DNA from: Opisthorchis felineus | Lineage: Eukaryota; Platyhelminthes; Trematoda; Opisthorchiida; Opisthorchiidae | NCBI GenBank assembly: GCA_004794785.1 | Contig: SJOL01005777.1 | Span: 106,164 to 170,163 of the forward strand | Direction: 5' to 3' | Length of the DNA stretch: 64,000 bases | Part shown: piece by piece, positions 1 through 62,378 of the stretch | Position numbering within the stretch: position 1 is the stretch's first letter | Layout: each line of letters starts with the position of its first letter | Program-made: the position numbers and the translations under genes | The notes under the pieces: generated by a model | Told to the model about the DNA's origin: nothing | What the model saw: the letters and a program-made list of their open reading frames with translations, nothing else | Databases searched by the model: none

Positions 1-144
1 CTTATGAGGACCATTCTTTGTTCGTCAGTGTTCTTCAAGTAATTTGTCGTCAAACAAAAATCACATAGTATTTGACGAACATCTACAGCCATTTAGCACG
101 TGTCATATATATTCTAAATGCACCTCGTTGTTTTTATTATTCAG

Positions 145-3100
145 TTCAACTGTTGTGGTTATTGGAATGGAGACGACTTCAATGCTAACGCAACACAGTT
201 TACTCGACGGGATCGTTACCTTGAGTATGAGTACCCGTGTAAGTCACGGTTGACTTGTAACACTTTTGGCCCGTTCTTGAAAAATGCTGTCTGTTGCATT
301 CGCTGCTATTCAACGCCGTAGAGTTTTCAGTTTCTATCTAAAAGATGCATTTTTAAGAATGCATTTAACAACGTACCGTGTTTCAGGTAGAGAAAAACTC
401 ATTGGGGACGTTTCTGTTTCAAATAAGTGGAACGGTATACCCCGGCTTTCAAATTTTCTGCAAAACACTCAGTAGGTTTTGAACTTGGGAATTTTGGAGC
501 ATAAAATTCACATTCTGGTATTCAAATCATTCACTTGGGTGGCAATTTAACTGCCGATATTTCATGGTCATTTGTGATGACTGAGTATGCTTTGAATTGT
601 GAGGTGTGGAAGTTTATATACGTTCTTTGAATTCGGACCGACATTGGTTATGTTTGATAGTTGGGTTTTTACCTTGTATTACCTGTTGATCGACTGACCT
701 TTCGTATTCACATCCTATAGACATTTACCACTTGCTGCTGTGGCTGGTTATGTCACCCGATCCATCTGTCGTTCTGATCTGTTGGATTTATCTAACTGAG
801 TTGACAATTTCATGTTCATAACGTTCCATAGATTGCACATAGTTCGAAGCGTAGGTTAGGTGAATTAGTTTGGTAATAACGCATTTGGCGGAGAAGAAAC
901 ACATCGCTAAAGTCACCACAGCGCGGATCACTGATAATCCCGGCTAAACTACCAATTTAGTGCTCGAAACAAAAATGTAACGTAAGTGAAAAATCCGACC
1001 GCCAACCTCATGATCAGAATGCACATCACGTTAGCCTGGAACTTCTCAGGTCTCCAAATCTCAACGTTCTCGGATTTTCCTACGCACGCAGCTGCAGCTA
1101 GTGACCGAAAAGTGCAGTGCGGCTTACGAAATCATCGCTCGGCTAATTCCTCCACGTCACGGTGGTGAGCAGAAATGAGGATAAAATTTGTAGTGGCTTG
1201 TTAATCAGGACTTTTGAACCGGACGATATTTTCGGCTTGGTTATTTTCGTTTTAGAGATTAAGTTATAAATACGAAATGATCCCAGTCGGGTCAATACGT
1301 AAGTTCCGCTTTAATCCATATTCCATGACACTGAGGTAGCTACCATGAAACAGTTCTCGTCCCCAGAAGCGAAGTCGTTTAGCTACACTCATAGGGCATT
1401 CATTCTAGGCAGTTAAACGTATTGAACATTTCTGGATTTTCCTAGTTTGGTTAGTACACCAAAATACACTTCTTTGTGGATATGAGACATAAGGTATATT
1501 TTATAAAATGTCCAGCCTACAAGGTCTTTGGGATTTGAACCAGCAATAGTCTAGACACTGAACCACAGCTTATCCGGAAAATTTTGATGCAGAACAGATA
1601 TTTGAAACAGGTTATAAGAAGACGCCTAAGTCAAGAATGAGTAAACACTCAAACGAATTTCATTAGTTTTGAGAAACCCACACTGCACATGCCTCCTAAT
1701 TAGAAGAAAATAGTGCTGGTACCTTGCCTTGAAAACAAATGTTCAGTGTGATCCACTGCCGGCACTTTCAGCCGGTGGTCCACTGTTAAACCCTAGAGAT
1801 GGAATGTGGATAAGAGACTCATCAGTGGGCATTTACTTATTTACTCACCAGTGTGTGCCAAACTGCGTTGATCGCTCAACTTAACGCTTATCCTACAAAT
1901 ATGGCGGATATGAACCACAGCCTGGGAACTAGACTGTGACCAACCGATGCTGTCGCCGCTAACCCGATCGATCCAACGACCTGATCTACCCAGCGAAACA
2001 GTTAGAGAGCTATTTGGAAGTCATGCAATAAAAGGCATCCGAAAACATTCAGGACTGTACAAACTAAATACAGAGGATTCCGAGGCCGATGACGAGAAAA
2101 GAAAATGTATCATGCGCTTCAGCTGAATGGTATTCTTTTGCCGCAGTGCCCGAGAACCAAATACAGGTTGTTATTGCTAACATTCATCTTATTTGAGACA
2201 GACAGAAGGCGACATTTGAAGAAACTTAGAGGTGATTGATTGCACATGGAAAACGACGAGTAAAAAGGACGAGGAATGCAGGAATAAAATAAATGACGTG
2301 CTGTGGGGATTTGAAAAGTTCGGCAATTTATGAACATCAAACCATCCGATTGAAAGAAGTTGATTAGGAATGATAATTCACATAATGGGTGGGCCCTTCA
2401 TCTGAGAATTCGTCACTGAAGACGGCAGTCAACGCCTAACCTCCTAACATGAAATGATGATATTATGCATTTGCCTTGTCTAAGTGCGAGTTTGTCACAT
2501 TATTGTTGCGCCACCCGTGGCATAACTAATAAGTGTTTGACTACCCGTATAGAGTAGCGGATTTGAAACTCCCTGCAGCTTGACCTGGATGGACTTATTT
2601 GGCCAAGTATTGGGGAGCACTGTTTGAGTTTTACCCTTTAAGACAGTTACGCAAGGATATTTAAAATGATTGTTGTCTGCTTGAAAGAACCCATTTTGCG
2701 CGAATCAGGAAACTGGTTTCCAGATTTGTACAGCCTTACACCTGAGATTAGATCGGAAGAATATATGCGGGACGCGGTAATCGAAAACACAGTGTGCAAT
2801 CTCAAAACGTACAAGACTCATTTTGGGTTCCGTTGTAATCCATATTAGCCATTGGCTAATAGCAGTTACCTATTTTTTTCAAGATAAGCAGCTCTAGACT
2901 TACCGTAATAGACAACAGTTTTTTCACACTATAGGAATAAATATGTACATTTACATGTTCTCGCAAGTGTGCCAGGCAGCAACCTGTCTATACTTTTTCC
3001 TACAATCGATGCTTCCATGCAGTATGTTCTAGCCTTGTCTAGGCTTGGGCAACCTGGCAGTGTCTCAGCCCTCGTGCCTCCTTCGGGTGGCATGGCAGTT

Positions 3101-6100
3101 AGGCACCGAAAGGGTGCTACAGCTGAATGATGGTAGTATGCTCTAGATCAAAACCCAAAAAATTGTATGGCTGGAAACTATCCTATTGGACATTTTGGAG
3201 CTCATGTATTGAGAAAGTGGAGACAAGGTTTTTTGGAGTATTTTGGAAAACAGCGATATATTAGACAATATTACCTTAGGTTCTTACAGTTACAAAATGA
3301 TCGGAAAATAGAGACAAATGCACAAAACCTAAGTTTGAAGTACTAGAATGTTCCAGGCATTAGGAGAAGTGCTGTGTCACATCCAATGTGAGTTTTTTCT
3401 CCAGGTCTTACGTTATTTTACTAGAAAATTCACGCGCAAATGCAGAATTTTCCGTATTTTTCCCATTCACAGATATTCGATACCCAATTTCATGCTGTAA
3501 GAAGTACAAAATTGGACAAGATGCTGACAGCTGCCCACAAGTATTCAACAGTACGAACAGCAATGTTAAAATTGGCTGCAAGTCAAAACTTTACGAAACA
3601 ACGGTGCCTCTGGTGAGCACCTTTGCTCTGGGGTCGTTGGGAATTCTTGCATTGGAGGTGAGTCAACTGGGCTGTACACGTAACGACCTTCTCATGAATA
3701 AAAGCGCCTAGCAACTCACACATGCCCACAGGAAGATCTATTCACTATTGGATCACGAGATGTGAGGTTGAAGGACAGTGGTGCCAAATCCCGCCCAAGT
3801 TTATGTTTAAAATATTTCTGATCAGCCACATGCGATTCGGTGAAATTCTGCTACATGTACGTTGCTATAAAGATTCGTATCCATGTCACGCAAGATTCCT
3901 CAAAAATGGGTTGCCTTAATGATTCCATGTTAAGGTTAATCAGGCCAGAACTTCTTACTCAATTCAATTCAATTTACCAGCTGTAGACCGCGCGCTGTAG
4001 GCACGGCTGGCATGCGGTGTACATGACATAACCAGCGTGAGTAATTCATCTATCGCAGGAGGGTTCCTTCCTCCTAGGACCAACTGGCATACCTCAGTAT
4101 TGCCACTCCGATATTCCAAGCAGACCCGACCAAGGCTTTCGAGACACCGGAGATGAAGCACTGATATCTTTCGTATGTCCTCTGCGCAAAGAGGCCACGT
4201 CTCTGATCCATGAAGCAGTACGGATAGCACAGTCTCAGTGTAAACTCTGCCCTTGACGTCAGGCCGGCGCCACAGATGTCGGTGGTTAGCGAACTCTGGC
4301 CTGGATTTCCTAATTCCACAAGTAATCTCATCTCCAGCCAGTCCGCCGGGCCTTACACAACAGTTCAGAAAAACGAATATATCTGCCACTTCGACTGGCC
4401 CGTCTGCAATCGTGAGTTTGGATTAGTAGTAACACTTTACACTTTGCACGTGTGCGGCAGAGTTATTAGGCTATTTGAAATGATTTACATTTTTGAAGGA
4501 TCTGACCCAAGGAGAGCAATATCGTCCACATACTCAGTGTTTTTAACTCGATGTGACCGTTTGTGCTGGACGTTCGTACTGGCCAGAATCAGACGATGAT
4601 CTGCACACAACTGAAGCGGTCGCTACTGATTATCGGCACACTGACCTTCGACTCCTAATCTACCACTGAATTGTGCTTCTTCGGGACTTAGTCGTCAAAA
4701 CTAATCATTTATATTGCCTCCTAAAATTACAATATCCGACCGTCTTGCTATCCGGAGGAGTTGTCGGGAACCTTGGTAAAAAAACCTTCTTTCTCACTCT
4801 CAAAGGTGCAGTCTGTTGGGACGTATGCGGATACACCGACAAACACCGTTTACCGCATCAATTCGTATTGATCTCACTTGAGTCAGACAGTCACACAGCA
4901 CAAATACGACTGTCTACTGGGATTCAGTCCAGTAAGTCTCTTTCAGCCTTGCGGCTGAGATCAACTACTTACTCCGTGGATACCACGAGCCATTGCGTCA
5001 GGATCATCGAATACCCCAAAAGTGCAATGTGGAACATCTGAGCTCGTCCTAAGCAGTTTTAGGTGCATAACCTAAGTGAGGCTTGTATGTCTGTTATGAA
5101 GACAAAACACGCATCGATCGATAAGGAAAGCAAGTTTTCAGCAAGATATGCCGGTTACCTTACGTGACAAAGAGTGCAGATTTTGGAGGATGCAACGTCA
5201 GTCGAATCTTTTGGGGGTTAGTAAGTGATTATTTTGGTTTATTTTTCTGGGCTAAGGTTTGGAAATGGGACAATAACTATGGACTGGCAGATTGGATGAT
5301 CGGACGGAATCGTCCCGTAGGTGGGATTGAGGTGCGGAGGAAGCCTGGCGAGCAGTGACCTGCGAAAGATACTTCCAGGTCGTCCAAACCGAATGAGTTT
5401 TGGTTGAGGTACTCCACCCTGACCCTTGGACTCAAAAGTCTGACGTACAAGACAGTGAGAAAATGTATGGTTTTTTCGAGGACCCTGTCCTCAGCCTGTG
5501 ACTCATACTTCGGAGACCGCGAGGCAGTGCTTTTTGGGGTTTTCGTCGGAGAACATTCTCGGAGCTAATGACTCAATAGTTTGACCCTTTTGAATACAGA
5601 GGACTAGCCCAGCCCGAGGACGCAGGTAGTGAGCGGCACTGGACTTTTGTTTTTAAGATATTTCGAACATATAGAATAATGCACCAGCAGTCGCGTTCAG
5701 CCGTTGGGCGACCGGAGTGTGTGGGTTTTCATGTCAAACTTTTCCAAACGGCCCTTCCTCGGGGGAGGCAGCATCACTGCTTCCATGAATATGGACATGC
5801 TGGTCACATGGGGGAAACGCCCTACTGCATTCACACACATATCGCAGAGGACAGTAGGGCTTTACCACCAGACTGCCTCCTAATACGATTACTTGCAGTA
5901 CGGGGACTCGCTGTTCTTCGTAGGGCTGCTCCCCGTCGGCCTTTCTGGCATGGTTGAACCTATAGGAACTGAGTTTCATACAGTATAGCCAACAGAACCT
6001 TTACAGCACAAAAAACCCGACCATCACCAGAAGGTTACAGTTTTTGGTCAGGAGAGCCTCCTGGTCACCGCTCAACCTCACTCGCAAGCAAAATATACAT

Positions 6101-8025
6101 TGGATTCGTTAAAATCTCAAAATGATCTACAAAGTCCTATCGGCCAGTTTTTTAGTCTGTCAACTGGCCGCGTTTGATAACTGGAAAACCAGGCTGCCTG
6201 CAACTACAACAGGGTCCTATTTACTACGGTCTTTGAGCAAAAAGGTCTTGGTTTCCCCTCTCATCTTACTGAATTGCTCACTATGGTTCTAGGGTGCTAT
6301 GTTTTACAGCGCCAGGGCTGCCGTTTGAAATACATCAGTGCAGCTTGTTGATATCACATTCTGTGGTGGCGGACCTTGACAAGTAGCTTCTCGGCATTCA
6401 CCACCTTTACACTTTTTCAACACAGTGGAAGACTATAAGGAAATGTTGAATCACTATTCATCCAAAGGTAAAAGGCCTTCATTCAACATTCGGGTAGTTT
6501 ATCACATTGATACAGAAAGAGAAGTCGTCAAATTTTCACTTTTTGTGTGAACCCCTTCCTTACTGACTAGTCGTACTTCGTTAGAAACGTTTGACTCCTA
6601 TCAAATGCTCCGCTATCATTTGAATTCGACTTGATTCCTTGTAGACTGATTATAATATTCTCATTAGCTGTCAAAAAACGAAGAACCTTAGGAATATAGA
6701 TAGTGTGAACTTGGGAATAAATATTGTCTTTTTTATCACCAACATGACAAAATGTTATGATATGTCCTTGAGCATAGTTTGCAAAATACTGACAGTTCGG
6801 CTGGTTTTGCATGCAGGATGCTCATCCAGATAGTACTCACCACAAAGGTCAAGTGTAATGTTCAGTTTGATCTTGCGGACTCACATACAACATGGAAATA
6901 GCATTTCGGATAGAAAAATTTAGATACATTGCAGCTCAAGGGCAAGAGGTAAAATTTCAAGAGACTTCAAAATAATAAAATCCCACTGGTTACCGATGCC
7001 CGCAATCACAATCACATTGTGTACTGTACAGATATCAGATTAAGGAATGTACATTTGCAATTTCACCCTGCACTTCTGGTGTAACCTACCTAGCCTGAGG
7101 ATCATGTATTTTGTTTACTATGAACTTTTATTGCCGAGATATTTGACTAAAAGGTCAGGTACTTCGCCTTTGATTGGGGCAATATAACACTCAAGAACTG
7201 ATTAAACGCCAATGAACCTACCGCATTTCGGTGACCGGCAACGCAGTAGTAGCTTGCTCTGCTCCATAGACAGCGCTTACACCTGAACTGATCACCATGG
7301 GTAGTGCATTGTGATAGTGTGGGAAGTGCGTCGAGCTTTGTACCTGAGCTGAGTCCATCCGGATCGGAAAACTGCGAAACGACACGTTAACTAATACACC
7401 TAGTGAAACTTCGTGAATTGTAGTCTCTTTCATGCTTGGTGTACCTCAGATGTTTTCATCTCTTGTGAACGCAGAAGCGACCAAAGGAGACGCGGTTCCT
7501 CTGTGCTCAATCAGAAAAAATCTGCCACTTTGTTGCGAAATCGAAAAGCGTGAACTAGAGCGCTTAGATGAACAAAAAGTATTGACGTAACGGAAACAGC
7601 CTTGTAGTCATTAGTGTATCCTACTTTAAGAACTATAGGCCCACGCACAAATATATTACAATTAAAATAACCAAACGCAGACGTTCTGTAGATACTCATT
7701 TCTACCGCAAACGTATTCAAGGAGTCCACCGCAGAATACCGATATCTACACCCTTTCTGTGAAAAAAATATCTTTTGCAAGCAACATTCCGGTTGCATTG
7801 ATACACCTGTAATGAAACCGACTGTTATTTTGTTCTGTTCTCCGCAATTGCAACGACTAACTAGACAATGTGTCCAAACTGACTTCTGAGTGCAAAAAAT
7901 GCATCAGTAAACCTGGAAGGCATTTTATACTAACACAGGGCTCTTCTTCCATTATTCCCCGTCTATCTTCACAGCTTTTGGTACTATCACTCGCAATGAT
8001 CAACGTCTGCTATGGAAAGAAATGA
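145..8025 (+). CDS. Tetraspanin A, 3' part of gene (last three coding exons)
   Basis: Coding exons are 145-238, 3473-3657 and 7975-8025 (TGA at 8023-8025); the 5' exons lie left of the window. Every junction is GT-AG: acceptor AG at 143-144, donor GTAAGT at 239, acceptor at 3471-3472, donor GTGAGT at 3658, acceptor at 7973-7974. Phases agree (94 nt, 185 nt, then 16 codons plus stop). The 109 visible residues hold the tetraspanin large extracellular loop: the CCG motif in the first exon, then PISCC, DSCPQ and IGCKSK, giving the six-cysteine pattern. TM4 is split over the last two exons (…LGILALE / LLVLSLAMINVCYGKK), followed by a very short cytoplasmic tail ending KK. Possible N-glycosylation sequons are NAT and NST. 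Exon lengths match tetraspanin B exactly. The last intron carries a retrotransposon insertion. AATATAAA at 8172 is a possible poly(A) signal. The family is a membrane scaffold; the specific partner is unknown. Confidence 0.9.
3036..3136 (+). repeat. Dispersed short repeat, copy 1 (SINE-like, hairpin-bearing)
   Basis: About 100 bases match, in reverse orientation, 15738-15837, and the distal half matches 9500-9575. Shared text includes a GGGCAACCT block, an ATGGCAG.TA block and an AGCTGAATGATGG end. A stem GCACC/GGTGC (3103-3107 and 3113-3117) closes a GAAAG loop. Tetraspanin paralog copy B lacks this piece at the equivalent place, so it behaves as an insertion. Confidence 0.55.
3950..6075 (-). 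mobile_element. Decayed non-LTR retrotransposon inserted in the last intron of tetraspanin A
   Basis: Paralog B matches copy A up to about 3945 and again from about 6085, so roughly 2.1 kb is extra in copy A. On the minus strand 4521-4535 reads EYVDD followed by IALLGSDPSKM, the catalytic YxDD box of a non-LTR reverse transcriptase. Downstream on the minus strand, about 4389-4080 encodes a CVRPGGLAGDEI block, an FANHRHLWRRPDVKGRVY block and SVLLHGSETWPLCAEDIRK, the characteristic C-terminal region of RTE/CR1-like elements common in flukes. Frameshifts and stops break the frame. On the minus strand the 3' end finishes in a short tandem tail at 3959-3976 (ATTGA units), as expected for target-primed elements with simple-repeat tails. 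The part from about 4640 to 6075 is only inferred to be element sequence. The clade (RTE or CR1) is not settled. Confidence 0.8.
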
Positions 8026-10998
8026 CGAGTCACAATTCCGCCTCAACTCATGACCCGTTCGCATGTTTTAGCAACATTTTTTATTCGCTTGTGAAAATTT
8101 TGAAACTGAATTATATGGATATAGGTTTGTTTGAATTCCAGAAAGCTTGAAAACTCGCTGGACAGTTGCACAATATAAAGCCAATCTTCAATGTACTATT
8201 TTTACGAACATCGATCTTTCTACTTTCATGCACGAGTGTTCATGGTTGTTCCTGTTCATACGGACTGAAATGTACGCCATACGGGAGGGCAAAAAGTGTG
8301 AATCCAAATAGCGTGACTGTGATTAATTGTGGTAGGTGATAATCGCCCATCTTCACGTCACAAACACCTCAGCATCAACAGGGTTCAAAATGGGTAGATC
8401 AGTTAGTGTTCCAAAACAACACCTCTTAAATATTCTTCGCCAGATGGATATACCGTTCAAGTTCGTGGAATGTCTTGCCCTTACCCTTATAATTCCAGCC
8501 GGATTTGCGGGTAGAACAAATCTCCTTACATCTAGTGCAATTCGTCAGGATTATCCACTCTCTCGATTTATTCTTCAAAGTTGTCGTAGGAAGGTACGCT
8601 CCAAGCGACATCAAAACCGCGTCTAGGAAAAAAGTGATTTCAACAGCATACCGGAAGCGAACCCGTGTTTTGCCTGTTACTTTCACCCTTAGAGTGCAAA
8701 TAGTTATTCAAGACTTTACATCCAATTGTCCTTCTCTGAAGCGCCAGCGTGAAACGTTTGATTTGTTGACCAGTTCTTGGTAGCTGCGTTAGCCGTATTT
8801 TGCCGTAACCAAAAACGTGAATGCGCAAAGACTTAAACCGCGAGAAGCTTTTGTCAGCTTGCCTCAGTTATTTCGTCAAAAATATACTTCGTCGAAAGTA
8901 AAGGGTAGTAAGTGTAACATTGATGATATTGTGAGGTTGGCCCACCAATTCTGGAACCCGAGGTGCCTACAAATGTCTGATCGCAGCAGTCTGGAGAGTA
9001 GCTTAAAATTTTTAGGTTAAGTTGATTGGGAGTCGCGCTTCTTCTATCGAAGAAAGCGCTGTTTTCTATTCCAAGCGACGGTTGGCGAAAGGTTCGCCAG
9101 AGACAAGTCGTGACAAGACAGTGTGGAACGAAATCGGCGGCTGTCAAACTGGATGTTGTGTTGTCTTCGCGCCTTCCTGGATAAGACCCAGATGCGTATG
9201 TTTGCAGGTGGGTGGCCCAAAAGACGTTTGACAACCGATCCTAATGGTTGCCATTTCCCACCGGAAACGCAGAGCTAATTTTCGCTTGCCGTTCTGAGAT
9301 GGAATTTTTTGCATTGAGGTTTACAGAGGACTCTCAGTCAATCCCTTTAATGGCGCCATACCTCAACATTAAGCTCAGATATGTTCATGTTTATCTTATC
9401 CGAAGTCGCAACACCGTTATACGTAATCGTCGTTGATGCGGACTCGGAGCCCCTTCGCACCAAGTTCACATTCATCTCTTATTTTTCCACTGCTTACTAA
9501 GGCTCCTCTTCCTATGGGTATGGCAGCTAAGCACCGGTGTATGCCACTGGTGCTTTAGATTAAACGATGATGGTGAGAACGGCACCACGATGATAACTTA
9601 GAAAAGCTTACCTCTATAAGACGATTTAGGCAATCTAGTACGATATTACTCTTCAAAGTCCCTTTACAAAACAAACTGAGAGGCCTTCTCAGTTAGAGTA
9701 GGCTTACTGGACACTTCCTGGGAGATTTGACTATCAGTTTCTCTTGCAAATAGCTATCAGGCAACTAGGTGCTTCATGACCACACAAAACAAAGGTTGTC
9801 TGTTACTTCGGACAAATCACTGAAAGGACTTTCCTTCCCACTGACGGAAACGTAAACCGAAGAAAAACGAAAACGTTCTCCTAAACAGTATGCGATTCCT
9901 GTGCCACCCAAGCGTGGCCAATAATCGGAAATTCAGCACTTTGCAGAGAGTAGAAATGATGTTGTTAGAGAAGCAGTTAATGAACCACTAGATGTTTCCT
10001 TGGAACACGTTAATGAATCAAATCAGTTTTGATGAGATTTTATGTCCGGAGTTCTAGCACATGATTGTTGGATAATTTATCAGCTTGGTATTGATCTGTT
10101 CGTTGAGCTTGGCAATTGACTTCCAGGTGTTTTGCTACCATTCGAGGAGATATCTTCAGTGCGCACTGAAGACACTAGTAACACACTACTAGAACACTAG
10201 TCGGTACCAATGAAATCGATTGGCGACAGCCGGCTGATAATCAATGCGATTAATTCGCACACAGACTGTATACAGTGACTCTCAGCCTTCAGCCACGACA
10301 TGTTTATGTCGAAGTTCAGATTGAACGGATGTTCTCATCTTAAGGAATGATTATCAGCCTACCTATTCCTTTCATGCGAGTAATCGTACTGCAAGATGTT
10401 TGCATCTCTTCACGGCAACCGTCTTTTCAAATGAAGATTTCATAAATTCACCGATATCTGCCTGCACAGAGTAGATTTTTACTAAATATCATTGTTCACC
10501 CTTGTCAGATCACCCAAGGTGAGTGTTTGTAAAACATGGGCATCCCATCTCTCTAGTGAATGGGCTTGTCAGAAGCAACGAGAGGTTAAAGTGCAAGGGA
10601 CCTATAACTGCCTTTCTTCCAAAAAATGATCAGTGGAAAATGGTTCTGAATCACTGTCGCTATATCTCTTTTTTTCGTATTTAGTGACTGCACCCGTGAT
10701 TCCAGTCTATGCAGTGCGCAGTCGAGAAAGTCAACTGTGCATTGCATTCGGAGACCAGCGCCCACAAGTAACATCGAACCAAACGCTTCTTATCAAGTTC
10801 AAGTTTTTTGCATAATGATCCAGGTTTCAGAAACACCGCTGCACTCATAATTCACTGGCTGCGCGAATCGAGGGCACACGGGAAACTAGGCGTCAAAACA
10901 TGAAATACTAGCATCAACATAGAAAAGGCTAAAATAAAGATCACCAATTTTCGCCAAGTTCTTAGAAAGTGTAATCACAACCACGTTTGCACGCAAAA
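8026..10998. other. Intergenic region between convergent tetraspanins A and A'
   Basis: No gene found. It holds the 3' UTR of A, a block at 8310-8470 well conserved with 52975-53130, a repeat at 9500-9575, a 20-bp palindrome at 10153-10172, and at 10855-10998 a stretch strongly conserved with 57520-57668 that should be the 3' UTR of A'. Open frames here are short and are open in several frames at once. Confidence 0.5.
9500..9575 (+). repeat. Dispersed short repeat, copy 2
   Basis: It matches the distal half of the copy at 3036-3136 (GGCTCCT…GGGTATGGCAGCTAAGCACC…GGTGCT…GATGATGG). The stem GCACC/GGTGC is at 9531-9535 and 9549-9553, extendable by two A-T pairs, with a longer loop than in the other copies. 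It lies in copy A sequence with no obvious counterpart in copy B. Confidence 0.45.
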
Positions 10999-11100
10999 TC
11001 AAAAACATGTATACCCTTTTAGTTCGGCCATGCGGTTGGTGTATGAATCATTCTTGGATGTGCAACAAAGAAGAATTATTGTCGTTATAAATGCCACAAG
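10999..11100 (-). CDS. Tetraspanin A', last coding exon (minus strand)
   Basis: On the minus strand a pyrimidine-rich tract ending CCCCACAG precedes an exon that opens LVAFITTIILLCCTSKNDSY and runs 33 codons to a TGA at 11001-10999. The first 12 or so residues are the second half of a TM4 helix and the rest is a cytoplasmic tail. It is clearly paralogous to 57669-57821 (tetraspanin C), where the penultimate exon is recognisable as tetraspanin. The tail lacks a 17-residue segment present in C. I could not find the upstream exons of A' between 11.1 and 28 kb; they may be too diverged to read by eye, or lost, in which case this is a relic. The gene faces tetraspanin A tail to tail. Confidence 0.7.
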   Translation of the reverse strand, partial: LVAFITTIILLCCTSKNDSYTNRMAELKGYTCF

Positions 11101-11540
11101 CTGTGGGGTAAAAAGGGACATGAAAGCTTGTAAACAATACTGAATAGATTTTGGAGACGTCATTTTCAATGCCACCAGGCATATGGGACGCCGAATTTAA
11201 TCTAGCACTGAGCCAGCAATGGTGCAACTCTTGAAATCAGAAAAAAAAATATCGCAACAACTTGCAAACCGTTGACCTTTATATCATTAAAAGCAATTGC
11301 GTTTCAGTTGATCTGTGCGATTCAACAGTCATGCACCTGCGGACGGTTGACTGTTTAAAAGATGGTCACCAGATTCTTGAAACTCGAGTTGTTTGTACTT
11401 ATTGAAGGGCAAACCCAAAAGGAGCTGTCGGCCTGCAGAACGCAAACATTATGACACAAAGGCTGAATGCGTCGGCAGATGCTGATCACCCAACAGTCGA
11501 CCGTGAATGCCAGTGCATTATTCAACCTGATCAAAAATGA

Positions 11541-12899
11541 TCTTAAAATCAGAGTCCTGTGCCGCTCAATGAACCAATGCTGTGAGCAGCTACATTAAGG
11601 TTCAGTTCATTATGCAGTAGTCTATCCGCCCTTGGGCCATGACGACTACCGGCAGCCAAGTGGCTCCGGGCAGGGTAGCCCAAAAATCCCAATAGCCACC
11701 GCCCTGCGGTTTTAACGTTTTAGCCAGGGGCTAGGACTAGGGTCACGAATAGACTTTACATCCTCCCGCGTGTTGGTGAGTCGGACGTTTGAGTCAAAGG
11801 CTGAAGGTGTGGTACCACAACCAAACTCTTTTTCGAACTGGGCAATCGGGAAGTATCATTCGCCACTACATTTCGTTGGCCGACATTTCCCACACGTCCC
11901 TCACACGCGTTCTTCTGATTCATTTGTGTGTCGACTACCTAACCGTTGCTTTATAACTAAGCATCCGCCAAGTGAAATAAACGAAAACAAACCCTTATTA
12001 AATTCAAGGGATTCGTTCTACCTTGCGGCCTCCAAAAATCTTAGTGTGTGTCAACTACTTAATAGGTCGCTCTTGTTCTCGCTTGTAATCAATAGATACA
12101 GTTTCTCACAAACGTGCATACAAGACCTCAGTTTGGTCATATGTCTAAAATAGCTCGGTATGAACCCGAATTTTCTCCACTTTATTCTTTGAATGTCTGG
12201 TGATCTTGATTCAATGGCTTGTGGTATCTAGAGTGCTTAGCTTCAGGTCTGATTGGAATGGATTCCAGTTAACGGTCACATTTGCGAGGTTACGTGGACC
12301 CTTTTGGTCAACATCGGTGCATCGTGAAGTGACAAACGTTACTCGTTTGTTGTTACATACGCTTGTGCAGAGCGTAGCAGTGAACCTGAGAAAAAAAGAT
12401 CCTATCGTGATTTGTCACAGTTGCGGTGTTTCTGGCATGAACGCATACATCCGTTGAATATGTCATAAAGGAGCCCATTTTGTCGACGGATTTTGGGTTG
12501 ACGCTCACCCCACAGAAAATGGTGCTCGACTTCTGCAGTCACGTGCTGAACATCACTTATTTCCAGCCAGCACACGCCTTCAGCGCAAGTGTCTACGTCA
12601 TATGACTTGGGGGCCGTTAAATGCCAAGCAGCCGTGAACTCTGATGGAAAATGTGGCAATCAGCTACAGGTGGAGATCTTCGATGCATGAGTGTTGCTCT
12701 TTTTGCAGTGCACCAGTAAACACATGTGCAGGCACTCATATCTGTTCATTTTGCCTTCAACGTCAGTTGATGCAAAGGCATTCAATTCACCACCTGCAAA
12801 AGGTGTCTGTGGGTCAGCGCTATTCAGATGATTTGGCTGAGAACCCCGGAGAACTCACCACGCACAATGATGATTTGAATGGCGATTGGAGGATGATGA
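11541..12899. other. Gene-free stretch left of the plus-strand retrotransposon
   Basis: No gene recognised. A GC-richer patch at about 11630-11760 and the following 400 bases may be the 5' part of the retrotransposon whose RT starts further right, but no endonuclease motif is readable, so this is a guess. Open frames at 11770-12153 and 12200-12457 show no family I recognise. Confidence 0.3.
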
Positions 12900-52400: not shown

Positions 52401-52679
52401 AGGATTTTCCTGAAATTTCCAGATAACATTTAGGTTGCAATGATCAACTATAAACCTGTGGTGAAATCGACTGGGATTTTTTCGGTTTTCCGCTATCACA
52501 GCCACCAGCAAGGTTATGCGCCTAAACTCACACTTCACTGCAACTAGGGCATCATTATGCCCAAAAATATTTTGTACTCTTACATGTTTCAAGACTATTC
52601 CCTTAATATTTTCCGTCTGTTACCACAGCTTTTGAAGCTGTCAGTTACAGTGATCAATTTCTGCTTCGAAGGGATATGA
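28448..52679 (+). CDS. Tetraspanin B, complete gene with eight coding exons (270 aa predicted)
   Basis: Exons are 28448-28501, 33988-34147, 39060-39160, 42392-42466, 43589-43681, 46788-46881, 50135-50319 and 52629-52679 (TGA 52677-52679). All introns are GT-AG (donors GTGAGT, GTAAGT, GTAAGT, GTGAGT, GTATGT, GTAGGT, GTGAGT) and every phase matches, giving one open frame. Domains: TM1 about residues 9-33 ([10 protein letters not shown] / [15 protein letters not shown]), small loop 34-71, TM2 about 73-97, TM3 about 106-126, large loop 131-237, TM4 about 238-266. The large loop has CCG at 164-166, PISCC at 197-201, C213 and C228, the six-cysteine set. It also has an NSS sequon. The inner loop lacks the usual TM2-adjacent cysteines. 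The tail is very short (FEGI), and Lys257 lies within TM4. An AATAAA at 52853-52858 is a likely poly(A) signal. Length is typical for the family (about 220-300 aa). Its role as a membrane-domain organiser is family knowledge. Confidence 0.93.
28502..33987 (+). other. Intron 1 of tetraspanin B
   Basis: About 5.5 kb with no supportable gene. Short open frames (31796-32098 plus, 31027-31329 minus) have no recognisable domain. The intron splits TM1 after residue 18. Confidence 0.6.
39241..39292. repeat. Imperfect TTATTAG-type microsatellite
   Basis: About 50 bases of AGTTATT/TTATTAG units with small interruptions, in intron 3 of tetraspanin B just downstream of the TM2 exon. Confidence 0.6.
41636..41663. 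repeat. TA then GA dinucleotide tract
   Basis: A short TA run (ATATATATATGT) is followed directly by AGAGAGAGAGAGAG. It lies in intron 3 of tetraspanin B. Confidence 0.7.
46882..52628 (+). other. Introns 6 and 7 of tetraspanin B
   Basis: Apart from exon 7 at 50135-50319, no gene is supported. Much of it aligns with introns of tetraspanin A (239-3472 and 3658-7974). A minus-strand frame of 124 codons at 51854-52228 contains an IDSGAQV string, considered under findings. Confidence 0.5.
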
Positions 52680-55312
52680 AAAATTGTGTGCAGGACTAAA
52701 CATCTGACAATTCACCATTCCGCCTCATCCCATGCTGGGTTCGCATGTCTTGTAAACATTTTCAGCTGCCTTTAAAAAGGTTGAAACTGAATTTTATGAA
52801 TAACGCTTGATTTGTATTACAGCAAACTTGACACTTTGTGGAACAGCTGCGAAATAAAAGGTCACTGTTCGATTTCCGAAAACTTATCTTTTGCTTTTCA
52901 TGCACGAGTGTTAGAAGTCTTTTCCTCTTTACGTAAAATATTCATCATAGAGTAGGACAGTAAGTGTGGTTCCGGACAGTGTGACTGTGATTAATTTTGG
53001 TAGGTGATAATCACCCACCTTTACGTCATCATCGCCTCAGCATTAGCTGAGTTGAAAATGTGTACATCAATAAATGTTTTAAAACGCTACCCCTTAAATA
53101 TTCTTTGCACGATGGGGAGGCCGGTAAAGTTAGTGGAAATTTTTTGTGCCTTTCATTTCCATAATTCCGGCGTAGGGTGTACAATGAGCCATCCAGAAGC
53201 TTCCTTACATCTGGTTGGTTTCATCAGGGTTGTCTACACTCTCATTAATTGTTCACTTTTGAATTGATGTTCTCGTGGAGAGACACCACAAGCGACCAGA
53301 CAGAGGCAAGTAAATTTGAACCATGCGCAAATGTATTTTTCGTGGCTGACGATTATTTGTCCGCGCAAAATCATTTCAACAGAATATCGGAGGTGATCCT
53401 TTGTTTCAACTGGTGCTTTCACCTTTAAAGTGCAAATCCTATTTTAAGCTTTCCATTCCGCCTGTGCTTTTCTGAAACACCAGCAAAGAGACTTGAGTTT
53501 GCTAATCAGCTCGCATACCTCAAAAGTTGCGTAAGCCGTCTTCATACCGTAACAAATAAAGTTGGTGCACGGGTGCTCAAAGCACGAGAAGCGCTCTTTT
53601 ATGGCACCGGAGATGCATTTCGGTGGAACTCAAGGGTAGTAACCGTAAGAGCGAGCACATTTTTTGTTAGGCCACTAATTTCGGAACCCGATTTGTCTTC
53701 AAATGTCTGGTCGCTGATGCCTCTGCAGCATAGGAATAGTTGGCTGGCTGCAGCCAGTATCCTAAAAAGTGGTGTGAAATCGGTTTCTTCTTAATGAAAT
53801 GGAATTGTTTGATAACCAAGAAAACACTTTTGGTTGAAGTGGTCGGGGGTTGCGCTGCGTGTGTCCAACCAAAATCTATCGAACAAAGCGCTTTTTTCTG
53901 TTTCAAGTGAGTGTTAGTGAAAGGTTCGTGGAAGACAAGTCTTGGCATGGTAACGTGAATCGAAAGCGGTGGCTGACAAGCTGAATGCTGCGGAACCTTC
54001 GCACCTTCCGGGGCTCAGCCAAGTGTCCCTGCTCGCAGGTGGGTTGCAATCCTGGATGACATGCCACAAAACCACTCCATTTGGCCTGCACGCTGTTATT
54101 TATTTAGGAAAATGATTCCTGTAAAATGATTCAAACAATCCACTATGACGGTAGACTCTAAAATCCCTTCGCAGTATAAGAAGAAAAGGCTTATCGAACA
54201 GCTTGTTTCGTAGGAGTGGTTTGTCATACTAGTCAAAGCCAAATAGAAACCCTCTGGAGAATTTGATAATCGGTTGCTCTTGCAGATAGCGATCGCGCAG
54301 CTAGATGCTTTACACACACTCAGTACAATAAAATAAGTTGGTCGTTACCGCCGGACAAATTACTAGGAGATTCACAGCCGCCTTACAGTCGGGGAAGAGA
54401 TAACCAACGAAAATATCAACGCGCTCCTAGACAGTATATGTTTCCTGTGCCACCTACGTGTAGCAAATGATAGGAAATCTAACACTGCAGATTGCATTGC
54501 AGTTATAACTTTCCATCTATATTTTTCTAGCTTCCTTATACACTGGCTTAACGTAACTGGTTGACCATCTGCTATTTTTCGGTGAACGTAGTAGACAACT
54601 GGATGATCATTGTATCTTTGCGGAAAACGTAAATTTATGGAGGAATTGATTGGTGGAGTGCAAGCGCCCTCCTATATTTCGTTGTGTTTTGATTTGCACT
54701 ATCCCAGAAGGGAAAGTATATCAACTCGGTTTCTTTCTACTCGTCTTCTCTGGCGCTGACTCAAACTAACGACCGTAGGAAAGAAAAAAATCCATTGTGC
54801 TAAACACCATTATTCCGGCTTCAGTAACCTACCGAATATTGTCTTTCCCAAATTTTGTTCAGACTTCTCCTCCTTTTGGAGAAGGCTTTCATTTCTCAGA
54901 TAGAATAACACAAGATTAGCCGCAGGAAAGTATTCGATATGAAATAGACTACGTTTGTCCGGTCCAGTAAGCTGTTGTCTTCGGGAATGTATGGCTGTTT
55001 ATGGGTAATGATAGATATCTGCCAAAATTACGTTAATAAGCCAAAACATTTCTGATGACATCTGCTCTCCAAAGTTCCAGAGCTTGATAGGTTACATGTA
55101 AAAATGAAGGCCAAATTTGATTGTGGTTGGACAAGATGTGGTTACAGGGGCAGATACTTTACCCATCAATGACTGCCGTGAACTACATTCATCAAGCATT
55201 ACACAAACGGCACTAAGAAATAGATATATCCTTCGCAAGTAAGCTGTCAACACCGAGGTTAACCGCCTTGTACGTTTGAAATGCATAGATTGACCTACTC
55301 TACCTAGCATAG
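52680..55312. other. Intergenic region right of tetraspanin B
   Basis: It holds the 3' UTR of B (AATAAA at 52853-52858) and blocks shared with 8100-9960. The shared block at 52975-53130 reads through an open frame (53004-53267) preceded by AG, but the corresponding residues in the left copy are not conserved in a protein-like way. From about 54490 the sequence has no counterpart in the left copy. Confidence 0.4.
52853..52858 (+). terminator. Likely poly(A) signal of tetraspanin B
   Basis: AATAAA lies 174 bases after the stop codon. At the equivalent place in tetraspanin A (8172) the sequence is AATATAAA. Confidence 0.5.
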
Positions 55313-56057
55313 TCTACAGGAACAATTTCGACAGTATTGCATCTGCTGACCAAGAAGAACTTTATGAAGGACTCATTTGTACGCTCCAGGAGATTACAAA
55401 TGGTTATTCGAGAGCAGAATTGGTCGCATTCGCAGAGGTAATCTAATTTTATACAAGCGGTGGTTGAGCCTCACTAGGTAGTTGTAGTGCTGTTTTATTG
55501 CTTATTGTACATTTCGTAATTTCACAACTTTTAGCTAGCGTCAACTAATTGCTGGCTCAACATGGTGTGTATGAGTGCAACCGATTTACTTATCTTAGTG
55601 AATGCACACCTGGGCTTGTAGATAAAGCCTCTCAGATGAATCAGTAATTCAAGCTTGCGGAGTTTTCTTCATTGTAATGAACAAATATGTGTGTTAATTT
55701 TAAATAAGTCACTTTTTACGAGCCCCTCTATCCTTGGTAAAAAAATTACAGGACGTTTTCACGGGTGTGTGTATAACTGGCTAACGTTTTCAGCACTTAT
55801 TCTTAAAATTCTTTGCAACTTAGTTCGTTCCGAGATGTTCCTACAAACGAGTCTTGGTAGTGGTCGCGAGTTTGCTTCATTGTATATTGACGCACATGCA
55901 TCCCGCAGAGCGTGCGACACCCTCATGGCTGTCGATTCAGTATTATGTTGGTTGTTCAGAGGGCCTTCCACTTCTTGTAACGAGTTACGCAATTCTGTGG
56001 GGCGACACCAGGCAATCCGCTACTTCTGCGCTGATGGTTCGAGGAAATTTAAACAAG
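55313..56057 (+). CDS. Two candidate exons of an unidentified membrane protein
   Basis: A first candidate exon, 55313-55437, follows AG at 55311-55312 and ends at donor GTAATC. It reads 41 codons with two leading bases and contains DQEELYEGLICTLQEITNG and ELVAFAE, an acidic, helix-like stretch. A second, 55824-56057, follows AG at 55822-55823 and ends at donor GTAGGA. It reads 78 codons and starts in the phase the first exon leaves. It has one hydrophobic helix (RVLVVVASLLHCIL) and another (GLPLLVTSYAIL) with a WLSIQYYVG stretch between. I cannot name the family. The piece lies in the segment present only in the right duplication copy. Caution: other frames are also open across 55824-56057, on both strands, and no upstream exon was found. 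Confidence 0.4.
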
Positions 56058-57668
56058 GTAGGAGGTCAAACTGATAAATGAGGTCTTTGACAACGCGTAC
56101 GCCAACGTCCCTATGCGTCATTCAACCCAAAGTATGCCGCGGTGTCAGGATTAAGGTTTCATGAAATTGTGTGTTGCCGCATGAAGCTGAAAGGGTGGTT
56201 CTGCTGGGGATATTTTGACCGTAAAATGCATTAGGATGTCCATGATCCGCAGTGTTGAAAATTACGATGTTTTTACTATTGTTGCTTGAATGGCTAGTCC
56301 TGGCTTGGAATTACAAGATACTCCTCTGCGACTGAAATATTGGAATTTAAGTACTTCGGTAAACAAATATGGAGAACTTCTTGCATCAACCGCCTTCAAA
56401 AAATGGCAATGTTAGAAATAAGTGGCGTAGCTGAACTTAAATCATGACCACTGATTATCACCTCTGTAGTTTTTGTCAATTTTTTGTAAAGTGTGAAACC
56501 AGAGCGTTTTCCTCCAACAGGAAGTATTAAAGCAATGACCAGGATGGTAATCAGACGCATAAAAGGCACTGTTTACTATCTACTCGACTGAATTTTTTTC
56601 TCTAATCCGGCCTATTAACAAGCAAGCAAAACGAAACAAGTTTACATCTCACATCCCAACGCAATTTCCTGAGCCGGTGACACTCAGTTTTCACTATCTT
56701 TGCTACATGATACTTTCGCCGTCAAATATATTATAAGGTTACCCTGTTGTTCCGTGGTCAATTACTGTGTTACAGGAATTTCAGCAACACGTATTTACAT
56801 TCAGCCAAATTGTTTATGCTTCTTTGTGGTAGGAAATGCTAAGAGATGAGTCTAGTTTATGCGGAAATGCTCCGAAGCATCTTATAGCAGTTTCGTACTT
56901 ACTTGGAACGTACTTGTCATCACTTTTCATGGAGCTTCGAACTCGAAACCCGCCAGCGAGTAGTTGACAGTTAAATCTATCGGCGACAACCGCCTGATAA
57001 GCAGTACGATTCACGCGCACATAGAGAGAATATAGTGACAGTCCGCATTTAATCACATATTTGTGTCGACTCCCAGCTTGTACGGGTGTTCTCATGATAA
57101 GGAACGGCTTTTTCTGCCTGGGGATTCCTCCCATGATTGAAATCGTACGGCGAACAGTTTAGGTCTTTTCATTGCAAGCGCATTTTGGATGGAGTTTTCG
57201 TAAAGTCACCGATATCTGGCTGCACGGTGAAGAGATCTGATTGATATGAGTATTCACTTTTGCCGGATCACATAAGGTTAGTGTTCGTGAACCACGGGCA
57301 TCTCATTCTCCCATTTGGATGTGCTTGTCACAAGACAAAGAGAGATCAAAGTATGAGGCCCCTATGACTGGCTTTCCTCCAAATATTATTTAACCAGAAG
57401 TGTTTCTGAATCACTGTCTCTACACGCCTTTTTGCGTCAGAATAAACGCACCTTATCAAGTTTAGTACAAGTTTTAAATAATGATCCTGTTTCCAAAAAA
57501 AATCCCGGCTGCAGTCACAAATCACTGGCTGCGCGAATCAAGGGCACACGAGAATATATGCGTCGAAACATGAGGTATTAGCATCAACATAGAAAAGGGC
57601 GAAATAAAAATCACTAAGATTTGCCAAGTTCTTGGAAAATGTTGTCACCATCACGTTTGCACGCAAAA

Positions 57669-60600
57669 TCAAAAACGTGTAAGTCCCTTTAGTTCAACCG
57701 TGTACGGCAACTTATACGGATGTGGAGAGGCATCAGTATAAATTACGGGCTGGCGGTTCGTGTACGAATCATCCTTGGACGCGTAACAAAGAAGAATTAT
57801 TGTCAATATGAACGCCACAAGCTGTGAAGCGAGAAAAAAAGGAACGAAAGCTTTTGAACAATATCGAATGTGTTGGGATATCTTTTTCCATACCGCTGCG
57901 CTTATGGAAAACCAAATTGGTTTTAGCACTGAGCGAGCAATGGTACAAACCTTGAACGTACAAAAGGACAAAATATCACGACAGCCGACCTTTATCTTAT
58001 CAAAATGAATTATTTTTTAATCGATCCGTGAACTTCAACAATCATTCGTCTACACACTGGTTACTGTTTGAAAGTTGGACACAAGATGCCTGGAACTGCA
58101 CAAGATATTTATAATTAAGAAAGGCAGCTATGGCCCTCAGAAATGTTTTATTCGTTTGCTGTTCTGCAAGGCTTTTTGCATTAATCGCATAGCCCGATGA
58201 GTATTTGTGTGTACAACTTGCCAGCACTGGTTTTGATAATTACTTATTCCGTCTGCATCGCAAAATTGTTCATAGGTGATGTTTTAGATTGGCTGTGAAA
58301 TGGCAGTGGAAACGCTGATATTAACGCAATAGAAGTCCTAGGTTGTTCATCATTCCAAGTCTATCCTGGATTTCCACCCAGATGGGAACAGATATGAGGT
58401 TACACAACAGTGATGGGCATATCCAGATTCTAAGCCTCCCCCCTGTGACATCCGTCGCTTACACGGTGACAATGGCAAAGTCCATTATCACTTGTCATCT
58501 GTCGTATTTGTCATCTTATTAGCTGGAAAGCTGGTTTGAGCTGCTGTCATCTTACGCACTGTTACGTATCTGGTAACTCACCACACTTATGTTTCGGTTT
58601 TAAGGACAACACAATTTTCCGTACTCGTTCTGCTCTGTCCTATCACCTGCCATTGGATTATTGCTCGCCTGCTTTTGGGTGTTTCTTGCACGAAGTTTCC
58701 TGGTCATATTAGCACTTGTAGTAACGGACACTTAGTAGTATAAGATCTGTTCAGCATGTCTCTATAGGGAGTGACAACGACGAATAAGTCTAAGGATCCG
58801 AAAACGGTACTAACTTTTATACCCGCGACAAATCCATTGCCCAGAGCACACACGGCAGCAGCTGACACCAGGTAGGTTACTGTGTGACCAAATTTTCATC
58901 ACAAATGTTACCTTTTGCAGTTCGAAATGCAGACCGGTTGTCACGGTCTTATCATTGACATATACGGATCATACTTTTCAACTGATTCCTCCATTCCATC
59001 GACTGTTGCGACCACAGTGTACACACACTACATTTTTAATGCCAATCGTCTCCAAATTGAGAGGAATTTAGTTTTTAGCCCAACGCTTCTTGCCCCTAAA
59101 ACAGTCTTATGATTTTCCCAAAAATCTAAAAATCGTATCTCTTGACTTGGCAAAACCTCAACTCTCGTACTGGCTCAGTCGTGCATGTCTCTGCAATTTT
59201 GAGAAAATAACTGAATACAAAAGCACGCCCTCTAAGTTTGTTTCGTTTAAACCAAGTTATTTACTTTGAGTTCCTTACTGCTATCATCGATCCGGGGGAA
59301 GGATAGCTTCGTGAGTAAAAAAGTTGTTCAACAATCCAGTATACATGTAAAAGGCCGATCATGCTAGGATCTTACAGATGCGGTTGGCCAAAATTTCCTT
59401 TTTTATTTCCTTCAATCTGATGATGATCCCAATTTATTAGCCACAAGGCTCGGTCTTGCATTAAATCAGAAGCCGGCGCGTTTAGTCCCGTAACAAAATG
59501 AACATCCATTATACAACCATTGTTACTTGAAGCCCATTGGACGCCGCTAAATGAACCAAGTTGAATCGATGCTTGCTTCCTTATCCGATGATATTTCTTT
59601 ACCCTCAAACTTTGCTGAATCTAAGTCCATCCACCGGTCACTCACACTTGATTCTTAGTTTGTTTTAAAACCATTTTTTTCCATTTGAGATATCAAATTT
59701 GTTTACATTTTGCTTTCCTAAATACTCCTCTTCTCGGCTTCTATCGCCCTAGAGTTTCTAGGACCCTTCATCGTGGTACACCGGTGTTATATTCTGTGTG
59801 AAGCTTCCTCTACGTATGTTGATCCAGTGGGAAATTCGGAGTCCCATTGACATTTCTACTTTAACCAAAATTCCCCCTGCATCGTTCACAAAAGTCATAC
59901 TTTCGACAAGAGAACAAGTACTTTTACTTTGCTTTCCTTTCTTAGGTCCTACTCATATTTTGCTTCAGTTAGCCGCAGGAAATCTCAGTCCACCTGAAAT
60001 ACGTTTTATTGCATTTTCTCTGTAGGTGCATGTCCCTTAAATTCACTCCGTCTTCTGTTCTTGAAACTTTTAAGGACCGCATTAATGGTTGTTTACTCAA
60101 ACTTTCCCGACGCCTGGCAATCTTGATATATTTATACATTGTCCACTCTCCTTGATATTCAGTCTTCCAACTCTCTGCAAATTCAACCTTTTAGAAACAA
60201 AATGTAACCCTGATCCATTATTCTTTCGGATGGGAATGTTTACTGCTAGTATGGTTCTCTTCCTTGAAATAATTTCCGAGTAAAGGGTATATGGTATAAT
60301 CTTTGGCGACGGGAAATTTTGCAGCGAGGCTGGTTATCAGCGTGCAGCCGCAGAGTGGAGGATGTAGACTTGGCGGGCTTACATTAAGTTCCTCTCGGAG
60401 AAGTCGCTTGCCAACAAAAATAGGCAGGCGTGCACAGCAAAACTAGCATTCTCCCCGATCGAACATTTCGTCCTCCGATCGAACGTTGTTTTAGGCACAT
60501 CAAAGAACTTTGCAACTACGGAATTCCTGGGTTTGAATAAGCCAAAAAGGTCATTGGAACACAGCAGACCTCCTTGTATCAGTCTCATGAACTAGCGTAT

Positions 60601-62053: not shown

Positions 62054-62086
<33 letters not shown>

Positions 62087-62378
62087 GTACGCAATTCACT
62101 TCACAGGTACCGATGATCAGATGCTAAATTTTCTTGCACATTACCTGCAAACCTAGGTTGATGCATGGGCAAACAACTAATTTATCTACTCACCGCGACA
62201 ATGGGAATCACCAAGGAGCTCAGAGCTACGAGCATGACCGGTTTCTTGAAACTATCATGCAGTCCCTCGTTGCAACCTTTGAGATAGTTGCTGTTTACTT
62301 CCGAGAACACTTGAGGACAATCTTGTGCACCCTCTCCGATGTGTCCTTTCTTGCAGCAGGGTACGGGATACTGGATTG
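57669..62378 (-). CDS. Tetraspanin C, last two coding exons (minus strand, 5' part beyond window)
   Basis: The penultimate exon is 62378-62194. It follows a TTTATTTTTAG acceptor and has donor GTGAGT at 62193. Its 185 bases have the same length and phase as the equivalent exons of tetraspanins A and B. It encodes IQYPVPCCKKG, QDCPQVFSEVNSN, YLKGCNEGL and the first half of TM4 (…VMLVALSSLVIPIVA). The last exon is 57821-57669. It follows a TTTTTTCTCGCTTCACAG acceptor, completes TM4 (LVAFILTIILLCYASKDD) and adds a tail of roughly 30 residues rich in Tyr and Pro to a TGA at 57671-57669. Joined, the frame is open and the cysteine pattern is tetraspanin. The CCG exon should lie a few kb further right, off the window. 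The tail is 17 residues longer than in A'. It is convergent with tetraspanin B. Confidence 0.87.
57822..62193 (-). other. Last intron of tetraspanin C
   Basis: About 4.4 kb. Its left end aligns with 11101-11540. A 15-unit ATAC microsatellite lies at 62021-62080. On the plus strand, 58768-59071 can be read as two small exons (see findings). No other supportable feature; open frames at 59372-59608, 60379-60588 and 60551-60760 (minus) and 59798-60025 (plus) match nothing I know. Confidence 0.5.
62021..62080. repeat. ATAC tetranucleotide microsatellite (15 units)
   Basis: Fifteen perfect ATAC units, followed by ATATATGTAC. On the minus strand this produces a meaningless MYVC-repeat open frame. 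Confidence 0.95.

What the first reader, a model, noticed from the sequence alone, without database searches (positions are those of the whole stretch)
1..62378. Tandem duplication of a convergent (tail-to-tail) tetraspanin pair
Two plus-strand tetraspanins (A, B) each face a minus-strand tetraspanin (A', C) across about 3-5 kb of shared intergenic DNA. The repeat unit is about 46.6 kb, and introns and intergenic sequence align as well as exons. This gives the order of events: an inverted pair first, then duplication of the pair. The plus and minus genes share the 185-nt penultimate exon length and phase, so all four look like descendants of one gene. Fluke tetraspanins are surface and vesicle antigens, so local expansion with loop divergence is biologically relevant.
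Basis: partly seen in the sequence, partly recalled or inferred. Interest (0 to 1): 0.75.

Follow-up and report, generated by a model that had tools for sequence, protein, structure and literature searches.

The report
Fluke tetraspanin duplication with orphan exon
A liver-fluke surface-protein gene was copied side by side long ago, and the copy dragged along only the last exon of its back-to-back neighbour, so the window holds three tetraspanin genes and one stranded exon rather than two complete pairs.

Summary
The direct duplication is real; the gene count is not. The window matches three annotated Opisthorchis felineus tetraspanins: A (CRM22_003519, +), B (CRM22_003520, +, all 8 exons inside) and C (CRM22_003521, -). 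A/B dS is 0.5-0.6; their split appears older than the Opisthorchis/Clonorchis split. A/C is far older. Exon length and phase are shared with tetraspanins on other scaffolds. The large loop is the better conserved part of A/B. One puzzle: the stranded exon and its 3' flank are the best conserved stretch of the tract (83.7%). Otherwise an ordinary gene-family expansion.

The parts
145..238 (+). A (CRM22_003519) exon 6, first half of the large extracellular loop (CCG motif); 94 nt
   Evidence: splice model; A exons 1-5 lie left of the window
3473..3657 (+). A exon 7, rest of loop and start of TM4; 185 nt, phase 1 to 0
7975..8025 (+). A exon 8, end of TM4 and stop; not in the database protein P0003 (ends ALEL) but supported by O. 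viverrini P0004
112..11384 (.). part of the left copy of the tandem tract that lies in the window (the copy continues left to at least C826:53,650)
3944..6148 (.). left-arm stretch without counterpart in the right arm (2.2 kb against 0.1 kb); 5,362-6,009 matches a repeat at C826:211,597-212,305 (70.7%)
10999..11100 (-). orphan copy of C exon 8 (33 codons and stop), with intact AG acceptor; no other exon of that gene found
10781..11166 (.). block around and downstream of the orphan exon: best conserved stretch of the aligned tract (318 of 380 columns, 83.7%)
11385..15894 (.). junction region between the two copies; no match to C's last intron or to the readable left flank beyond a 25-nt chance-level hit; holds dispersed repeats near both ends (about 11,486-11,864 and 15,738-15,833)
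15895..58097 (.). right copy of the tandem tract; for 15,895-16,319 the genome search found one other place, C826:53,650-54,063
28448..28501 (+). B (CRM22_003520) exon 1
   Evidence: unique splice solution reproducing P0002 exactly
33988..34147 (+). B exon 2 (160 nt)
39060..39160 (+). B exon 3 (TM2, 101 nt)
42392..42466 (+). B exon 4 (TM3, 75 nt)
43577..43681 (+). B exon 5 (105 nt)
46788..46881 (+). B exon 6 (loop, CCG, 94 nt)
50135..50319 (+). B exon 7 (loop and TM4 start, 185 nt)
52629..52679 (+). B exon 8 (TM4 end and stop, 51 nt)
54492..56972 (.). stretch of the right arm with no counterpart in the left arm (2.5 kb against 0.27 kb)
57669..57821 (-). C (CRM22_003521) exon 8, 50 codons and stop; counterpart of the orphan exon
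62194..62378 (-). C exon 7 (185 nt)
63941..64000 (-). C exon 6, cut by the window end (runs to 64,034); C exons 5-1 lie right of the window

Best explanation
A single tandem duplication in an opisthorchiid ancestor copied a segment running from the 3' end of tetraspanin gene D (or beyond), through the whole plus-strand A/B ancestor, to a point inside the last intron of the convergent minus-strand gene C. The result is D, A, a stranded C exon 8 on the minus strand, then B and the intact C. A and B then diverged as paralogues under purifying selection. Shown here: the two collinear tracts, where homology ends, the stranded exon, the resumption of a second tract, and similar synonymous divergence for A/B and for stranded exon/C8. 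Inferred: unequal exchange or a replication error as the mechanism, that the right break was the original one rather than a later deletion, and the dating to before the species split. The proteins most likely work as ordinary tetraspanins, membrane organisers of the fluke surface and vesicles (from family knowledge, not tested).
For: Window identified by exact proteins and scaffold length 466,215. Collinear tracts. Homology ends at 11,384/58,097, 276 nt into C's last intron; beyond it 0 of 16,453 nt aligns collinearly. The second tract resumes at 15,895; for its first 425 nt the genome search found 2 places, itself and C826:53,650 (the tool calls such counts lower bounds), so it does not look like a dispersed repeat. 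D's last exon sits inside the left tract at C826:56,122-56,172. A/B dS 0.49 (exons 6-8) or 0.60 (all); stranded exon/C8 dS 0.42 from only 25 synonymous sites, compatible with one event; A/C and B/C at or near saturation. Tree of 13 proteins: A_Ofel+A_Oviv 99/98; B of three species 88/91 (not starred); A+B 100/100; D as sister 96/92.
Against: The left break cannot be seen: the left tract starts at the very edge of a 23.9-kb run of N. The B-side copy lacks the counterpart of D exon 8 (1.0 kb in place of 5.0 kb), so a second deletion must be assumed. The 4.5 kb between the tracts is unexplained. O. viverrini has two C-like genes (P0007, P0013), so a once-complete A' is not excluded. The stranded-exon block is too well conserved (83.7%) for simple neutral decay unless C's side is nearly frozen.
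Confidence: 0.8

Rival explanations
1. The whole convergent pair was duplicated, and A' later lost exons 1-7 by deletion in O. felineus, leaving its last exon.
For: Leaves the same footprint. O. viverrini has two C-like genes, one of them (P0007) apparently on the same contig as its A orthologue P0004, judged only from equal contig length. Conserved acceptor, frame and 3' flank.
Against: No trace of C exons 1-7 or C intron DNA after the orphan exon: 0 of 16,453 nt collinear, and one 43-nt inverted match at E 0.025 when all of C 164,261-186,000 is tried. In the 61-column exon-7 tree the two O. viverrini C-like genes group together (85/69, not starred) with C_Ofel outside, which points weakly to a separate O. 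viverrini duplication.
Confidence: 0.14
2. Assembly or haplotype duplication.
For: This scaffold has several suspicious repeats beside gaps (99.97, 99.5, 93.8 and 93.1%) and a 98.7% palindrome beside a gap; the genome paper reports high heterozygosity and Illumina mate-pair assembly (PMC6530080, passages).
Against: A and B differ at about 0.5-0.6 synonymous substitutions per site, both have a complete open 8-exon model (splice sites GT-AG were imposed in the search, one solution each), and each has its own orthologue in O. viverrini.
Confidence: 0.02
3. Separate, older tetraspanins that merely sit together; noncoding similarity is from shared transposons.
For: Some dispersed repeats do match across the scaffold.
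Against: 16 collinear plus-strand matches in one order over the window arms and more to the left; for the tract start only two places were found in the genome (lower bound).
Confidence: 0.01

Closest known systems
Tetraspanin family (Pfam PF00335), including the C. sinensis entry named 'tetraspanin-CD63 receptor' (P0005)
   Same: Four TM segments, CCG loop motif; B is 86% identical to P0005 over 274 aligned residues
   Different: The link to published vaccine antigens is open: PMC11732047 (passages) reports O. felineus tetraspanins found by mass spectrometry at 50% similarity or less to Ov-TSP-1/2/3; whether those are A, B, C or D was not tested here
Tandem duplications that capture part of a neighbouring gene (D. 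yakuba study PMC5460883 and review PMC3449122, both seen only as search listing and start of abstract)
   Same: A break inside a neighbour's intron leaves a detached exon beside the complete duplicate (general principle, recalled)
   Different: Here the detached exon is a 3' end on the opposite strand and is the best conserved part of the tract
Opisthorchiid granulin genes GRN-1/GRN-4 (PMC6530080, passages)
   Same: Local duplicate that the paper describes as fixed in opisthorchiid genomes
   Different: GRN-4 is reported 95% identical to GRN-1 in nucleotide sequence; A/B are 64% identical in protein and far older

Membership tests
Tetraspanin | Profile match PF00335 | tested here: met
   Three partial spliced peptides hit it alone, E 6e-4 to 1e-4, under the curated cut-off of 32.1 bits; the database proteins P0001, P0002, P0003 carry PF00335.27 as precomputed annotation
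Tetraspanin | CCG motif and further cysteines in the large loop, TM4 after it | tested here: met
   Translations of A, B and C
Tetraspanin | Orphan exon is a tetraspanin gene of its own | tested here: not met
   One terminal exon of 33 codons, no other exon; the reading frame around it alone gives no Pfam hit, but neither does that around B's real exon 3, so that result is uninformative
Tandem segmental duplication | Two collinear direct copies with coding and noncoding DNA | tested here: met
Tandem segmental duplication | Second copy starts after the end of the first | tested here: met
   11,384 then 15,895; two places found for the start sequence (lower bound); the intervening 4.5 kb is unexplained
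Tandem segmental duplication | Exact left breakpoint | not testable with these tools
   Falls in or beyond an N run, C826:29,771-53,649
Duplication of a convergent gene pair | Both genes complete in both copies | tested here: not met
   C exons 1-7 absent from the left copy
Loop-driven diversification | Large loop more divergent than the rest, omega raised | tested here: not met
   Loop 74% identical, omega 0.24; rest 57%, omega 0.47. Exon 7 by itself has omega 0.45, so not every loop exon is low

The most novel reading that the evidence does not exclude
The stranded exon is still in use or still exchanged with its parent: either C transcripts can splice to it, some 46.7 kb beyond C's own last exon, as an alternative and shorter cytoplasmic tail (acceptor, frame and stop intact, 17 codons fewer), or its 3' flank is a shared regulatory element kept in both copies, or gene conversion has homogenised about 380 bp. 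The evidence excludes none of these: this block is the best conserved part of the tract, above the coding exons of A and B.
Probability: 0.15. Interest if true: 0.5.

Novelty: new member of a known kind. Interest (0 to 1): 0.33.

Why it matters
It corrects the gene count and the history of a fluke surface-protein cluster: three genes and a stranded exon in the window, a fourth gene (D) further left, one datable duplication and one much older split. It supplies complete exon models for A, B and C, including a last exon missing from the database protein for A. It warns against reading loop-specific divergence into this family. The conserved stranded exon gives a small testable question about gene conversion or alternative tails.

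Tried and rejected
Four complete genes: rejected after tblastn with 15 related proteins, an exon scan by splice site and phase, and DNA comparison. The best leftover minus-strand protein hit between the orphan exon and C was a 47-residue stretch at 46,334-46,462 like B residues 126-172 (30%, E 0.02, no introns), taken as chance. 185-nt exon as proof of local descent: rejected; loop exons of 182, 188 and 188 nt with the same phases lie on C987, C1417 and C1182. There the scan also offered other lengths of equal or slightly better score (237, 134, 131 nt); I took those that start at the conserved YP motif and end after TM4's start. The fourth fetched off-scaffold place, C1182:1,076,001, gave no such exon. 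Positive selection on the loop: not seen. Orphan exon plus downstream frame as a small gene: substitutions by codon position [5,10,8], [10,8,5], [8,5,10] give no coding signal. Structured RNA in its 3' flank: z -0.10 left, -2.59 right, different folds; Rfam at gathering threshold none. Ten ORFs, among them those in the arm insertions: no Pfam family above its cut-off. Ten hydrophobic segments, among them B exon 3 and the orphan exon: none above cut-off, so single short exons are below that tool's reach. Solved structures: only CD81 and CD9, best E 0.024. Neutral frame survival of the orphan exon is uninformative: 46-62% chance of no premature stop. No paper on this cluster was seen among titles and abstract starts listed (20 of 64 shown; 12 of 21; 12 of 13; 3 of 3; 1 of 1); open-licence PMC only. 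Not completed because the machine stayed busy: a count of all tetraspanins in the genome, and genome-wide copy numbers of the junction and orphan blocks.

Full report
WHERE IT IS. A profile of three spliced peptides from the window found 10 proteins at E up to 1, among them three of Opisthorchis felineus, CRM22_003519, 003520 and 003521, with a longest contig of 466,215 bases. The window lies at G000:C826:106,164-170,163 of its own genome, and C826 has that same length. The splice models reproduce P0002 (B) and P0001 (C) letter for letter, and the first 256 of 257 residues of P0003 (A), each with a single solution. The species is therefore inferred from named database proteins; the genome handle itself is unnamed.

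GENES. A, B and C each have eight coding exons of 54, 154 or 160, 101 or 104, 75, 105, 94, 185, and 51 or 153 nt with the same phases. The window holds A exons 6-8, all of B, and C exons 8, 7 and part of 6. A fourth cluster gene, D (CRM22_003518, P0011), lies on the plus strand further left: its first four exons match within about C826:20,677-27,207 and its last at 56,122-56,172. The part between (residues 132-258) was not found outside the paralogues in the held genome and may lie in a run of N at 29,771-53,649. Database protein P0003 ends ALEL and lacks the A exon 8 found here at 7,975-8,025, which O. viverrini P0004 supports.

THE REPEAT. Self-comparison gives 16 collinear direct matches between the arms at E 0.01 or better, 64.9-79.5% identity, from 112/46,755 to 11,384/58,097. 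Spacing moves between 44.5 and 46.8 kb because each arm carries a stretch the other lacks (about 2.1 kb more on the left at 3,944-6,148, about 2.2 kb more on the right at 54,492-56,972). Left of the window the same two tracts continue with spacings of about 49.8 to 68.4 kb, back to C826:53,650, the edge of the N run. Thus 46.6 kb is a local spacing and not the unit length. Of the window arms 5,604 of 11,384 and 5,708 of 11,458 nt are alignable. In aligned columns A/B exons are 77.0% identical (629 of 817) and other noncoding 71.4% (10,865 of 15,223). These figures count alignable columns only and so flatter the noncoding part.

THE FOURTH GENE IS NOT THERE. The minus-strand exon at 10,999-11,100 encodes 33 residues beginning LVAFITTIILLCCTSKNDSYTNR and a stop, with an AG acceptor, and matches C exon 8 at 57,669-57,821. 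Fifteen related proteins searched against the window gave no other C-type exon on the minus strand between it and C; the best leftover hit there is at E 0.02, at 46,334-46,462, like a stretch of B and without introns. A scan for loop exons by length, frame, cysteines and splice sites found A, B and C plus one unrelated candidate at 44,409. Beyond 11,384, 0 of 16,453 nt align collinearly with the same distance of C, and all of C up to 186,000 gives one 43-nt inverted match at E 0.025. Homology in C ends 276 nt into its last intron.

HOW IT AROSE. After the stranded exon a second tract begins: for 15,895-16,319 the search of the 630-Mb genome found two places, itself and C826:53,650-54,063 (the tool calls counts lower bounds). 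D's exon 8 falls inside the left tract; its counterpart is missing on the B side, where 1.0 kb stands for 5.0 kb, so a later deletion has to be assumed. The 4.5 kb between 11,384 and 15,895 remains unexplained; it holds dispersed repeats near both ends.

AGE. Nei-Gojobori dS is 0.49 for A/B exons 6-8 and 0.42 for the stranded exon against C8 (25 synonymous sites only), and 0.60 for all A/B exons, ranging from 0.45 to 1.02 by exon. A/C and B/C are at or near saturation. A maximum-likelihood tree of 13 of the 15 fetched proteins groups A with its O. viverrini orthologue (99/98), B of three species (88/91, not starred), A+B (100/100) and D next to them (96/92); C with two O. viverrini C-like proteins (100/99). 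So A/B is younger than D/(A,B) and C, but appears older than the split of these species. The tree warned of long branches (Echinostoma, Calicophoron), and its root is drawn at the midpoint.

TWO CLAIMS THAT FAIL. Tetraspanin loop exons on three other scaffolds have 182, 188 and 188 nt with the same phases, in my choice among the splice candidates, so exon length and phase mark a wider subfamily. A survey of tetraspanin introns (PMC2650405, passages) states that the ancestral introns are phase 0 and that derived ones concentrate in the loops, seven of ten breaking the frame; the phase-1 loop intron here fits a derived, subfamily-level intron. The large loop of A/B is more conserved than the rest: 74% and omega 0.24 against 57% and 0.47 (loop bounds set by me at B residues 129-243; by exon omega is 0.15, 0.23 and 0.45 for exons 5, 6 and 7).

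THE PUZZLE. In 1,244 overlapping 100-column windows over the aligned tract, 24 of the best 25 lie at 10,781-11,166, the stranded exon and its 3' flank; the other is in A exon 7. Noncoding windows away from it average 70.1% (sd 4.2, highest 82). The exon is 85.3% identical (87 of 102), the 3' side 83.8% (181 of 216), the block 83.7% (318 of 380), falling to 72.9% on the intron side; one further 50-column step beyond the block, 10,628-10,754, is also high at 86%. If the stranded copy were neutral and C evolved at half rate, 77% would be expected from noncoding divergence (P 0.0014); with C completely frozen 84% would be expected and the data fit (P 0.6). With synonymous rates as the yardstick even a frozen C fits poorly (P 0.014 or 5e-5). 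The block edges were chosen after looking, the windows overlap, and the rates are rough. The exon's omega is 0.40 with bootstrap range 0.12-1.25, so selection on the peptide is not shown. Constraint on C alone, gene conversion, or a retained role all remain open.

FUNCTION. Fluke tetraspanins are known surface and vesicle proteins, and O. felineus tetraspanin-CD63 receptors were found in secretions and in one vesicle fraction but not in the tegument (PMC11732047, passages); whether those are A, B, C or D was not tested. The cluster proteins most likely act as ordinary tetraspanins. No expression evidence was examined.

On re-reading the calls I softened the copy-number statement, the support for the B group, the off-scaffold exon lengths and the literature absence, and added the leftover protein hit, the inverted 43-nt match and the control result.

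Noticed in passing
C826:99,771-104,665 (window -6,392 to -1,498), left of the window: Palindrome of about 4.9 kb, 98.7% identical to its own reverse complement, containing A exon 5 in both orientations and ending exactly at an N gap; probably an assembly error
   Followed up: partly
C826:11,889/17,652; 78,010/82,427; 86,312/88,114; 200,565/206,194: Similar to near-identical sequences (99.5, 93.1, 93.8 and 99.97%) on the two sides of N runs, suggesting duplicated gap flanks in the assembly
   Followed up: no
7,975-8,025: A exon 8 is absent from database protein P0003; another database product of the same locus tag (P0015) skips exon 6 and reads exon 7 out of frame
   Followed up: partly
O. viverrini proteins P0007 and P0013: Two C-like tetraspanins where the search of the O. 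felineus genome showed one; weakly sister to each other on exon 7
   Followed up: partly
3,036-3,131 and 15,738-15,833: A 96-bp inverted match, 76%; the first lies in a short dispersed repeat also found near C826:213,430-214,972
   Followed up: no
46,334-46,462, minus strand: Open stretch with an NCCG motif weakly like B residues 126-172 (30%, E 0.02), upstream of B exon 6 on the other strand; probably chance
   Followed up: no
62,020-62,083: Perfect CATA tetranucleotide array, 16 copies, 111 nt downstream of C exon 7 in its last intron
   Followed up: no
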